A stretch of DNA of 64,000 bases from Mycobacteroides immunogenum (lineage in GTDB: Bacteria > Actinomycetota > Actinomycetes > Mycobacteriales > Mycobacteriaceae). The DNA lies in assembly GCF_001605725.1 (NCBI RefSeq), contig NZ_CP011530.1, forward strand, positions 4,216,001 through 4,280,000, written 5' to 3'. A program made the position numbers and the translations under genes. Numbering within the stretch: position 1 is the first letter of the stretch; each line of letters opens with the position of its first letter. The notes beneath the pieces were generated by a model. The model was given only the letters and a program-made list of their open reading frames with translations. It was not told the origin of the DNA and did not search any database. Shown one piece after another: positions 56,462 through 62,600 of the stretch.

Positions 56462-56488
56462 CGACGGGTGGGTACCGATTCCGGTTCC
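56462..56488 (-). promoter_or_regulatory. ECF (SigM-like) promoter of the T7SS-like operon
   Basis: On the minus strand GGAACC (56483-56488), 16 bases, then CGTCG (56462-56466). This fits the reported SigM consensus GGAAC-N16-18-CGTCR. The preceding A tract plus GGAACCG block (15 nt, 56482-56496) recurs upstream of esxU. Confidence 0.75.
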
Positions 56489-56557
56489 ATCTTTTTTCCC
56501 GGATCTGTGGATCACAGCATCTTCCCGTTCAACTACTTGGTCGGGTAGGGTCGCCGC

Positions 56558-57595
56558 ATGCGCATTGGAACCACGCTGAGCTACGCCGGCGGATTCACCG
56601 AAGTGGTCGACGAGCTCGCTGAGCTGGAGAAAGTCGGTCTCGACATCGCTTTCGTCGCCGAGGCCTACTCGTACGACGCGGCGAGCCAGCTCGGCTATCT
56701 CGCTGCCAAGACTTCTACCGTAAAGCTCGCGTCGGGCATCTTCCAGCTGTACACGCGCACCCCCACCCTGCTGGCCATGACGGCGGCCGGTCTGGACTAC
56801 GTCTCGGGCGGCCGGTTCGTTCTCGGTATCGGCGCCTCAGGCCCCCAGGTGATCGAGGGATTCCACGGCGTGAAGTACGACGCGCCACTGGGCCGCACCC
56901 GCGAGACCGTTGAGATCTGTCGCAAGGTGTGGCGCCGCGAGCGCCTCGAGTTCGAGGGCAAGTACTTCACGGTGCCGCTTCCCCCTGAGCAGGGCACCGG
57001 TCTCGGCAAGGCGCTCAAGCTCATCAACCACCCGGTGCGCGACCGCATCCCGGTACTCATCGCCGCGCTCGGCCCCAAGAACGTGGCCCTCACCGCCGAG
57101 ATCGCCGAGGGCTGGCAGCCCATCTTCTTCCTGCCCGAGAAGGCCAATGACGTCTGGGGTACGGCCCTGGCCGAGGGCAAGGCCAAGCGCGACCCGTCCT
57201 TGGGCGAGCTCGAGGTGTACGCCGGGCCCGCACTCGCGATCGGTGACGACGTGGAGGCGCTGTACGGATTCGTGAAGCCGAGCCTCGCGCTGTACATCGG
57301 CGGTATGGGCGCCAAGGGCAAGAACTTCTATCACAACCTTGCGACCGCCTACGGGTTCGGCAAGGAAGCCGACACCATCCAGGAGCTCTACCTGGCCGGC
57401 AAGAAGGCCGAGGCCACCGAGGCGGTGCCCGACGAGCTAGTGAAGAACATCTCCCTCATCGGGCCGAAGAGCTTTGTCGCCGAACGGGTCGCCGCGTTCA
57501 AGGAGGCCGGGGTGACAACACTCAACGTGGCCCCGCTCGCGGCCGACGCGGCAGGGCGGATCAAGCATGTCGAGGCGCTGCGCGAGCTGCTCTGA
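56558..57595 (+). CDS. LLM-class F420-dependent oxidoreductase
   Basis: A 345-residue luciferase-like TIM barrel using coenzyme F420. It starts MRIGTTLSYAGGFTEVVDEL, has VKLASGIFQLYTRTPTLLAM, GRFVLGIGASGPQVIEGFHG and PVLIAALGPKNVALTAEIAEGW, each cut. The family closely resembles Rv3520c-type enzymes, whose substrates are often unknown. It is divergent from the T7SS-like operon and just upstream of the PhoD gene. These two genes are additional to the M. tuberculosis order (Rv3440c next to Rv3441c, from memory). Confidence 0.9.
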   Translation: MRIGTTLSYAGGFTEVVDELAELEKVGLDIAFVAEAYSYDAASQLGYLAAKTSTVKLASGIFQLYTRTPTLLAMTAAGLDYVSGGRFVLGIGASGPQVIEGFHGVKYDAPLGRTRETVEICRKVWRRERLEFEGKYFTVPLPPEQGTGLGKALKLINHPVRDRIPVLIAALGPKNVALTAEIAEGWQPIFFLPEKANDVWGTALAEGKAKRDPSLGELEVYAGPALAIGDDVEALYGFVKPSLALYIGGMGAKGKNFYHNLATAYGFGKEADTIQELYLAGKKAEATEAVPDELVKNISLIGPKSFVAERVAAFKEAGVTTLNVAPLAADAAGRIKHVEALRELL

Positions 57596-57655
57596 TTCCC
57601 GCGCCGTTCGCTTAGCGTTCGGCGTGTGTTCGCCTGCTGCCCCGAAGGTGGTGGG

Positions 57656-59170
57656 ATGACAGCCATCCCGCGCCGCACGGTGCTGCGCACAGCTCTGTTT
57701 GGGCTCGCGGCGGCCCCGGTGGCCGCCTGCGGACCGGCGTTGGTGACAACGCGCCCGAAGCTCACACACGGCGTTGCTAGCGGATTTCCGCGCACCGACG
57801 GTGCGGTGATCTGGGCGCGCTCGGACCGGCCTGCCACCATGATCGTCGAAACAGCTGCCACAGAGAGCTTTTCGGATGTTCGGCGCTTCAAGGGCCCCAT
57901 CCTCACCCCGGACACCGACGGCACCGGCCGGCTGCGTCTGACGGGCCTGCCCGCAGACGCGGAGGTGCACTATCGGGTGACCCTGGACTCGGACGGATCC
58001 CTGAGCGAGCCCTTGACCGGCGTCTTCCGGACCGCGCCGGCAGCGGCGCGGAACGTGCGGCTGATCTGGTCCGGTGACGTGGCCGGGCAGGGGTTCGGCA
58101 TCAACCCCGACCTCGGCGGAATGCGGGTCTTCCGCACCATGGCCGACCGGAACCCCGACTTCTTCCTGCACAGCGGGGACACGGTGTACGCAGACGTGCC
58201 GATTCCGCAGACCCTGACCCTGCCCGACGGACGGATCTGGCGCAACGAGGTATCCGAAGCGAAAAGCGCTGTCGCGCAGACCCTCGATCAGTACCGGGGC
58301 CAGCACGCATACAACCTCACCGATGCCAACTACCGATACTTCAACGCGCGCGTGCCGCAGTTGGTGCAGTGGGACGACCACGAGGTACTCAACAACTGGT
58401 ACCCGGGCGAGGTCCTCGACAACGACAAGTACACCGAAAAACGGGTTGATGTCCTCGCCCAGCGTGGCCACCGGGCATTCCATGAATGGCAGCCCCTGGA
58501 ACCCCTTGAGGCCGTGGACGGCCGTGTATACCAAAGAGTCTCGTACGGACCCCTGCTGGACGTATTCATCCTCGACATGCGCAGTTACAAAGACCCCAAC
58601 TCCCCCAACCGGCAGCAGCACGGCACCATCCTGGGCGCCCGCCAGACCGAATGGCTCATCGACGCGATGGCCGCCTCCACCGCCGTGTGGAAGGTCGTGG
58701 CCAATGACCTGCCGCTGGCGCTCGTGGTTCCCGACGGCAAGACCGACTTCGAGGCCGTCGCCAACGCAGACAATGGACCACCTCTCGGGCGGGAAACCGA
58801 ACTGGCGCACATCCTCTCGCAACTCAAAGCCCGAAAGGTACGCAACGTAGTGTGGTTGACCGCCGACGTGCACTACACCGCGGCCCACGAGTACTCACCG
58901 GCACGTGCCGCCTTCACCGACTTCGATCCGTTCTGGGAGTTCGTCTCCGGCCCGCTCAACGCGGGCGCGGGGAAAGAGTCACCCCTCGACAAAACCTTCG
59001 GTCCGCAAGCCGATTTCGTCCATGCGGCGCCGCCGGACAAGCAATCGCCGCTGGACGGCTATCAGCACTTCGGCCAGATCGACATCGACGGGGGCAGCGG
59101 CGATCTGACGGTCACGCTATGCGACGCGGCAGGCGCGGCGCTGTACACGCGCACCCTGGCACGCGTTTAG
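57656..59170 (+). CDS. phoD: Alkaline phosphatase PhoD, predicted Tat lipoprotein
   Basis: A 504-residue secreted phosphodiesterase/phosphatase. The N-terminus has a twin-arginine motif PRRTVLRTALFG and the lipobox PVAAC, so it should be exported folded by Tat and lipidated. The PhoD domain has LIWSGDVAGQGFGINPD, LHSGDTVYADVP, VQWDDHEVLNNWYPG and WLTADVHYTAAHEY, which bind the catalytic metals. ATG 57656 is preferred over GTG 57626 because a GGTGGG ribosome site precedes it. Its stop overlaps the convergent glmM stop by 4 bases. Confidence 0.92.
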   Translation: MTAIPRRTVLRTALFGLAAAPVAACGPALVTTRPKLTHGVASGFPRTDGAVIWARSDRPATMIVETAATESFSDVRRFKGPILTPDTDGTGRLRLTGLPADAEVHYRVTLDSDGSLSEPLTGVFRTAPAAARNVRLIWSGDVAGQGFGINPDLGGMRVFRTMADRNPDFFLHSGDTVYADVPIPQTLTLPDGRIWRNEVSEAKSAVAQTLDQYRGQHAYNLTDANYRYFNARVPQLVQWDDHEVLNNWYPGEVLDNDKYTEKRVDVLAQRGHRAFHEWQPLEPLEAVDGRVYQRVSYGPLLDVFILDMRSYKDPNSPNRQQHGTILGARQTEWLIDAMAASTAVWKVVANDLPLALVVPDGKTDFEAVANADNGPPLGRETELAHILSQLKARKVRNVVWLTADVHYTAAHEYSPARAAFTDFDPFWEFVSGPLNAGAGKESPLDKTFGPQADFVHAAPPDKQSPLDGYQHFGQIDIDGGSGDLTVTLCDAAGAALYTRTLARV

Positions 59171-62117: not shown

Positions 62118-62156
62118 AGCTATTTCCTCCCATTACCTACGTGGATGTATTGGCGC

Positions 62157-62456
62157 TTAGTTCGCAATTCCGCCGATGGACTGCTGCTGGTTGGCAATTT
62201 CCTCCTCGACGTGCTTCCGGTTGCCCTGCATCACTTCGGCAATCTGCGCAAGCGACTGGTTGGTCTTGCGCATCTCGTCGTGCAGCCGGGCTACCGCCTG
62301 GTCGAAGGACTGCCGCGCGCCACCCTGCCATACCGAGTGCGGCACGCTCTCGCACTCATTCTGAAGCCGCGTCGTCAGCGTCGAAAGTTCATCATGCCGA
62401 CCATTGATATCTGACTCGGCCTTAACGATCGCCCCGAGATCTTGCTCCATTGTCAT
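62157..62456 (-). CDS. esxU: ESX-4 WXG100-family protein EsxU
   Basis: A 99-residue WXG100 protein. The turn carries the intact WxG in HSVWQGGARQSF (W43-Q44-G45). The C-terminal helix has KHVEEEIAN, where His replaces the Tyr of YxxxD/E. ATG 62456 is chosen because GGGAGG lies 7 bases upstream; a GTG at 62495 is too far. EsxT follows 39 bases on. The promoter is a SigM-like element at 62543-62569. Confidence 0.9.
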   Translation of the reverse strand: MTMEQDLGAIVKAESDINGRHDELSTLTTRLQNECESVPHSVWQGGARQSFDQAVARLHDEMRKTNQSLAQIAEVMQGNRKHVEEEIANQQQSIGGIAN

Positions 62457-62542
62457 TCGATAACCTCCCTGTTCTCCCCAGGCCCGGCCAGTCACGGGTG
62501 TGACGTCCGGTTTCTGGCCGGTTTTGTCCTTACAACTACATA

Positions 62543-62569
62543 CGATGGCCCTACCGTCAGATCGGTTCC
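62543..62569 (-). promoter_or_regulatory. ECF (SigM-like) promoter of esxU-esxT
   Basis: Minus strand GGAACC (62564-62569), 16 bases, CATCG (62543-62547), one mismatch to the SigM -10 CGTCR. The block AAAAAGATGGAACCG (62563-62577) is identical to that upstream of the 56453 gene. The leader to esxU would be about 80 bases. Confidence 0.68.
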
Positions 62570-62600
62570 ATCTTTTTCAAAGTTTTTTTCAGCAATCTGG

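What the first reader, a model, noticed from the sequence alone, without database searches (positions are those of the whole stretch)
56482..62577. Same 15-base promoter block controls esxU-esxT and a second T7SS-like operon 6 kb away
Minus strand AAAAAGATGGAACCG occurs upstream of the 56453 operon and of esxU. Each is followed 16 bases after GGAACC by CGTCG or CATCG. This matches the reported SigM consensus GGAAC-N16-18-CGTCR, and SigM of M. tuberculosis is reported to control esxT/esxU. The extended A-tract identity goes beyond the sigma consensus, suggesting one co-regulated export unit interrupted by unrelated genes (glmM, rpsI, rplM).
Basis: partly seen in the sequence, partly recalled or inferred. 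Interest (0 to 1): 0.8.

Follow-up and report, generated by a model that had tools for sequence, protein, structure and literature searches.

The report
SigM promoters on type VII secretion operons
Two operons of secreted-protein genes carry the same control sequence for the stress regulator SigM, which in this mycobacterial group also sits in front of about a dozen other operons that look like secreted toxins and lytic enzymes.

Summary
AAAAAGATGGAACCG occurs only twice in the 5.57-Mb genome, upstream of esxU and of the 56453 operon. Both sites are very probably SigM promoters: GGAACC-N16-CGTC stands at fixed distance before 48 of 50 orthologs of the 101-aa gene and GGAACC-N16-C[A/G]TC before 19 of 21 esxU orthologs. 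The second operon encodes an EspC/WXG100-like protein with a YxxxE tail and a WXG-domain partner, an ESX-type substrate pair. The idea of one unit marked by the A-tract is only partly right: the tract belongs to a promoter family (17 sites against 1 control). Fifteen sites in 14 loci precede type VII-like operons (NlpC/P60, Ntox37, Tle1-like, hydrolases, PE-PPE-EspG), often with lipoprotein genes; three of these sites score weakly. Fifteen of 25 WXG/EspC loci lack it. Three of three M. abscessus prophage toxin operons read carry it. SigM control of esxUT is known; the clade-wide enlistment of effector operons, some phage-borne, I found in no paper I could search. Transcription, secretion and function are inferred.

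The parts
62543..62569 (-). SigM-type promoter of esxUT: GGAACC (-35), 16-base spacer, CATCG (-10)
   Evidence: matrix 50.9 left out; GGAACC-N16-C[A/G]TC before 19 of 21 esxU orthologs, the other 2 have GGTC
62563..62590 (-). A/T tract plus the 15-base block 5' of the -35; family sites are A-rich at about -18..-15 and -8..-5, UP-element-like
62157..62456 (-). esxU (WXG100)
   Evidence: PF06013 4.2e-11
61827..62117 (-). esxT (WXG100)
   Evidence: PF06013 1.9e-7
61766..61806 (-). intrinsic terminator after esxT
   Evidence: 17-pair stem and T run; -39.3 kcal/mol, z -6.16
62601..63995 (-). Rv3446c-like ESX-4 gene; the esxU promoter lies between it and esxU
   Evidence: TIGR03931 7.3e-35
56462..56488 (-). 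SigM-type promoter of the second operon: GGAACC-N16-CGTCG, start codon 9 bases after CGTC, so probably leaderless
56482..56498 (-). A-tract plus the 15-base block 5' of the -35 of the second operon
56148..56453 (-). 101-aa EspC/WXG100-like protein (type VII secretion target); YxxxE tail
   Evidence: PF10824 1.8e-6 over cut-off; YxxxD/E in 23 of 23 rows of A2
54530..56155 (-). 541-aa partner: WXG-type helical N-domain, Pro/Ala-rich linker, conserved C-terminal TPCEIAADELPKAG
   Evidence: W98 and G100 invariant in 32 of 32; model of residues 1-220 pLDDT 93.8; tail
54303..54533 (-). 76-aa third gene, aromatic/basic C-terminus
   Evidence: no Pfam match; similar tails in two other SigM loci

Best explanation
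The two blocks are SigM-dependent promoters of two separate ESX-4-linked substrate operons: esxU-esxT, and an EspC-like/WXG-domain pair (Rv3440c-Rv3439c-like, names recalled). They belong to a promoter family, refined consensus GGAACC-N16-CGTCNNA. In the clade of this genome (very near M. immunogenum) the family has an upstream A/T tract and stands before about 14 type VII-like loci. Proposed working: a membrane anti-SigM is inactivated, SigM is freed, and the ESX-4 substrates and a set of effector and lipoprotein (probably immunity) operons come on together. Shown here: sequence, conservation, genome-wide distribution, domains. Inferred: transcription by SigM, ESX-4 export, and the trigger (cell contact, taken from reviews of work on M. 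smegmatis).
For: Position and spacing conserved before the 101-aa gene in 48 of 50 loci read (50 of the 58 genomes with a match); start codon 8/9/10 bases after CGTC in 1/32/16 of 49 and the A of CGTCNNA in 49 of 49. esxU 19 of 21. Pattern searches that name no gene (the pattern came from this genome's sites): 63 sites in 40 of 297 genomes against 0 control, 24 of 28 sites parsed, one per genome, lead to esxU or homologs of the SigM operons; 16 exact hits in 84,980 genomes, 13 mycobacterial, all 13 before T7SS-type genes judged by eye from the translations. A leaderless pattern (90 sites in 51 of 60 genomes, control 0), of 30 loci read, gave 16 Rv3440c-like, 6 of a 169-aa gene, 3 EccC-like, 1 esxU-like and 4 others. 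SigM is present.
Against: No transcript data. No matrix site before sigM or the ESX-4 core genes of this genome (L156 best 9.5, L136 only the esxU site), so the machinery may not be induced with its substrates here. Three of the 15 sites score near the chance level: 8328 17.7, 308775 19.3 and 2043160 15.8 left out, against a Markov maximum of 15.3. Another ECF factor could read the motif. The matrix includes the window pair (scores are leave-one-out). In the leaderless search the Rv3440c-like hits are partly by construction. Four of 28 sites and four of 30 lead to nothing recognised.
Confidence: 0.86

Rival explanations
1. The shared 15-mer is a private co-regulation mark: a second factor binds the A-tract/GAT block and couples only these two operons as one export unit.
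For: The exact 15-mer is unique to the pair in this genome, and both members of the pair keep it exactly in the 7 related genomes looked at.
Against: A at -8 and T at -1 in 12 of 13 family sites each; upstream A+T 0.70 in 10 T7SS sites against 0.37 in 20 other sites with the same core; further loci in G088 and G147 carry the same 15-mer; in the wider genus the 101-aa promoter has only a weak A preference at -9 to -7 yet keeps -35 and -10.
Confidence: 0.07
2. The promoters are read by another ECF sigma factor with a similar -35/-10, and SigM is only one of several inputs.
For: ECF factors share GGAAC-like -35 elements (recalled); the genome's ECF factors were not counted here.
Against: The motif finds the reported SigM targets esxU and EccC without naming a gene.
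Confidence: 0.1
3. Chance similarity of two A-rich, GGAACC-containing stretches.
For: The loose consensus is not enriched in the genome.
Against: Shuffles give 0.05; 17 against 1 in the genome; conservation in 48 of 50 and 19 of 21 orthologous loci.
Confidence: 0.01

Closest known systems
SigM regulon of mycobacteria (esxUT, ESX-4, esxEF/cpnT)
   Same: Same sigma factor, same -35/-10 type, esxUT promoter; EccC-like genes and a 169-aa gene with Esx-like neighbours recovered in other species.
   Different: In this clade many more operons carry the promoter, with an added A/T tract; no site before the ESX-4 core genes here.
Polymorphic toxin-immunity cassettes of M. abscessus prophages (PMC8092301, PMC9434293; passages)
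   Same: WXG-motif proteins, a large toxin with variable C-terminus, lipoprotein or immunity gene; homologous operons in prophi68-1, prophi102-2 and prophi91-4.
   Different: 'sigm' does not occur in PMC8092301, 'sigma' and 'promoter' do not occur in PMC9434293; here a SigM-type promoter is shown before the three prophage operons read and before the chromosomal ones.
EspC/EspA-type and PE/PPE substrate pairs of ESX systems

Membership tests
   site 1 fits, site 2 has CATCG, one base off, and keeps it in the nearest genome read
SigM-dependent promoter | sigM encoded in the genome | tested here: met
   NF007225 289.8 bits, cut-off 190
SigM-dependent promoter | transcript start at the site, lost without SigM | not testable with these tools
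   needs 5'-end mapping
EspC/WXG100 T7SS substrate (101-aa protein) | profile match over curated cut-off | tested here: met
   PF10824 28.8 bits, cut-off 23.5; PF06013 25.4 bits is below its cut-off 27.3
EspC/WXG100 T7SS substrate (101-aa protein) | C-terminal YxxxD/E export motif | tested here: met
   23 of 23 rows of A2
WXG-domain substrate (541-aa protein) | WXG turn in a helical N-domain | tested here: met
   W98/G100 invariant in 32 of 32, helical model; Pfam WXG100 match only 0.02, below cut-off
ESX-4 substrate | secretion lost in an ESX-4 mutant | not testable with these tools
   -
Polymorphic toxin operon (window second operon) | toxin domain at the C-terminus and an immunity gene | tested here: inconclusive
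   no toxin domain found in the 541-aa protein; conserved, not variable, C-terminal tail
Polymorphic toxin operons (other SigM loci) | toxin or catalytic C-domain joined to a WXG-type N-part in one protein | tested here: inconclusive
   Ntox37, NlpC/P60, Abhydrolase_8, Tle1-like domains found, but a WXG match in the same protein only for the 703-aa ORF at 308775 (WXG100 0.0061); elsewhere it is in a neighbour gene or absent. Prophage homologs are annotated as WXG polymorphic toxins.

The most novel reading that the evidence does not exclude
SigM is the master switch of a contact-triggered ESX-4 arsenal: in Mycobacteroides it jointly turns on substrates and a changing set of lytic, lipase-like and nuclease-like effectors with lipoprotein immunity genes, and prophages join this arsenal by carrying a host-type SigM promoter on their toxin cassettes. 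The window's second operon would be the genus-wide, non-toxic core component of that machine.
Probability: 0.38. Interest if true: 0.82.

Novelty: new variant of a known kind. Interest (0 to 1): 0.6.

Why it matters
The substrates of ESX-4 beyond EsxU/EsxT are an open question; PMC11791044 says they remain to be identified (passages). A promoter that picks 10 of 25 WXG/EspC loci in one genome gives a short, testable list. It also links the published prophage toxin cassettes to a host sigma factor reported to respond to cell contact (PMC9514802, PMC10906988, passages).

Tried and rejected
Loose consensus scans: not enriched. Of the 34 GGAACC-N16-CRTCR sites, 30 were read; 20 of these lack a T7SS neighbour that I know of. 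Their downstream genes were not annotated; by position none stands directly before a WXG/EspC hit. Four of the 17 sites (5552373, 3922762, 4469848, 5363723; the first not domain-scanned) and two of 15 (349596, 2036907) have no T7SS neighbour that I recognised and are taken as chance. SigM site before sigM or the ESX-4 core of this genome: none. Plasmid homologs of one effector-locus protein: none; phage homologs of three others: none. Viral scans: besides L161, the two other hits had no T7SS-like gene that I recognised; L178-L184 (7 loci) were not read. Of the three non-mycobacterial hits, the Kutzneria one precedes a lipoprotein-like ORF, the other two nothing recognised. Structure of the 101-aa protein and the plain Foldseek PDB search were never accepted. 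Rv3439c/Rv3440c appear in 6 held papers; titles and starts of abstracts do not concern SigM, the texts were not read.

Full report
What was checked. The 15-mer AAAAAGATGGAACCG lies at 56482-56496 and 62563-62577 on the minus strand and nowhere else in the genome. The short sigma consensus is too common to mean anything by itself (4 against 3.0 in the window; 271 against 309 in the genome), so the case rests on conservation and on the longer motif.

Conservation. Of 60 genus genomes, 58 have the 101-aa gene (53 of 53 good ones). I read the upstream DNA of 50 of the 58: 48 have GGAACC-N16-CGTC and 2 have it with one mismatch. In 49 aligned cases (one did not fit the parsing pattern, which itself demanded GGAACC) the CGTC (one CGAC) and the A of CGTCNNA are fixed, the spacer is free apart from a G before CGTC in 45 of 49, and the start codon follows CGTC after 8, 9 or 10 bases (1, 32, 16): the layout of a leaderless ECF promoter. 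For esxU, 30 of the 60 genomes were searched, 21 gave a match, and 19 of 21 have GGAACC-N16-C[A/G]TC (17 CGTC, 2 CATC); the other two have GGTC.

A promoter family. TGGAACCGAAT-N12-CGTCGTA within 3 mismatches has 17 sites in this genome against 1 for the reversed pattern; AA-N5-TGGAACC-N16-CGTC within 1 mismatch has 15 against 4. Together, 15 sites in 14 loci stand before T7SS-like operons: 8328 and 14776 (between gyrB and gyrA), 193877 (PE-PPE-EspG), 308775 (WXG/abhydrolase), 472179 (WXG protein), 1385567 (EspA-like TPR_23 and lipoproteins), 1867960 (WXG100, abhydrolase, DUF3558 lipoprotein), 1927431 (DUF3558; prophage homologs annotated 'WXG motif protein'), 2043160 and 2042129 (WXG and Tle1-like), 3266670 (DUF2515), 3378110 (Ntox37), 4186931 (NlpC/P60) and the two window sites. 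That is 13 of the 17 and 13 of the 15. Several WXG/EspC matches are below Pfam's cut-offs, and the 14776 locus (DUF4185) is assigned by layout only. The sites at 8328, 308775 and 2043160 score little above the chance maximum (17.7, 19.3, 15.8 against 15.3). A lipobox pattern matches in 9 of the 12 non-window loci; I dropped 3378110, whose matches overlap the toxin-like gene in the wrong place, leaving 8. Clustering the 31 and 10 hits by hand gives 25 WXG/EspC loci: 10 have a SigM site, 15 do not. For those 15 only about 0.1-1 kb upstream was read for most (best score 4.5), but no site lies within 10 kb of them.

The A-tract. Family sites share A at about -8 to -5 and -18 to -15 and T at -1. 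Among 30 of the 34 GGAACC-N16-CRTCR sites, the 10 T7SS ones average 0.70 A+T in the 20 bases upstream and the other 20 (not annotated) 0.37 (P 1e-5). The tract is therefore a trait of the regulon in this clade, not a mark of the two operons.

Searches that name no gene. An exact pattern in 84,980 genomes gave 16 hits: 13 mycobacterial (among them M. chelonae and M. franklinii), all 13 before T7SS-type genes judged by eye, and 3 others not. In 297 genus genomes, 63 sites against 0 control; of 29 loci fetched, one per genome, 28 were parsed and 24 lead to esxU or homologs of the SigM operons. A leaderless form, shaped on the 101-aa promoter, gave 90 sites in 51 of 60 genomes, control 0. Of 30 read, 16 are Rv3440c-like, 6 a 169-aa gene, 3 EccC-like (one tested by profile), 1 esxU-like, 4 others. 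The 169-aa gene is followed by WXG100 genes in L272 and by DUF2563 genes in L280 and L292, by a similar one by eye in L270, by an unrelated ORF in L273 and by none found in L266; the likeness to the esxF-esxE-cpnT operon is recalled. EccC4 and esxU are reported SigM targets (PMC10117145, PMC8593097, passages), which ties the motif to SigM.

Phages. Five M. abscessus prophage records hold homologs of the 1927431 operon; the three read (prophi68-1, prophi102-2, prophi91-4) carry GGAACC-N16-CGTC with an A/T tract before it. An IMG/VR contig with a phage integrase gene has the same. The prophage papers propose ESX-3 or ESX-4 export (PMC8092301, PMC9434293, passages).

Prior knowledge. SigM activates esxT, esxU and ESX-4 genes in M. 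tuberculosis and, on contact with donor cells, in M. smegmatis, where it is said to regulate a cell wall hydrolase and a nuclease too (PMC10906988, PMC10117145, PMC9514802, passages; Raman 2006, Agarwal 2007 and Clark 2018 not held). These unread papers may already list the Rv3440c-Rv3439c pair, so I claim no priority for that. My searches (mostly seen as listings, four of them capped) did not show the Mycobacteroides effector regulon or the prophage link; most subscription papers are outside the library.

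Noticed in passing
window 54530-54577 (-): The 541-aa protein ends in TPCEIAADELPKAGR; a near-identical peptide with an invariant Cys ends or nearly ends 37 of 37 homologs printed. Function unknown.
   Followed up: partly
window 54303-54533 (-); L125:571-798; L127:1764-2000: Three SigM loci encode 75-78-aa proteins with an acidic stretch and a C-terminal aromatic-basic tail (YRWQRWRR, YQFQRYGR, YQFKRFGPK); no Pfam match for the window one.
   Followed up: partly
G000:C1:7828-21000 (L125, L127): Two effector-like operons with family sites sit between gyrB and gyrA (genes named by eye); the 8328 site is weak.
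   Followed up: partly
G000:C1:193877 (L154): A PE-PPE-EspG operon carries a family SigM site, suggesting that EspG-chaperoned substrates also belong to the regulon.
   Followed up: partly
L265, L269, L275: In three other genomes an EccC-like gene has a leaderless SigM-type promoter; in this genome the ESX-4 core has no such site.
   Followed up: partly
G000:C1:103971, 784685, 2388179: Three WXG100 pairs with identical profile scores, probably esxG/esxH copies, all without a SigM site.
   Followed up: no
window 62507-62521 and starts of other SigM transcripts: Short GC hairpins seem to lie just behind several of the promoters (e.g. GGGC-AAAACT-GCCC behind 193877); a possible shared 5' leader element, not tested.
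   Followed up: no
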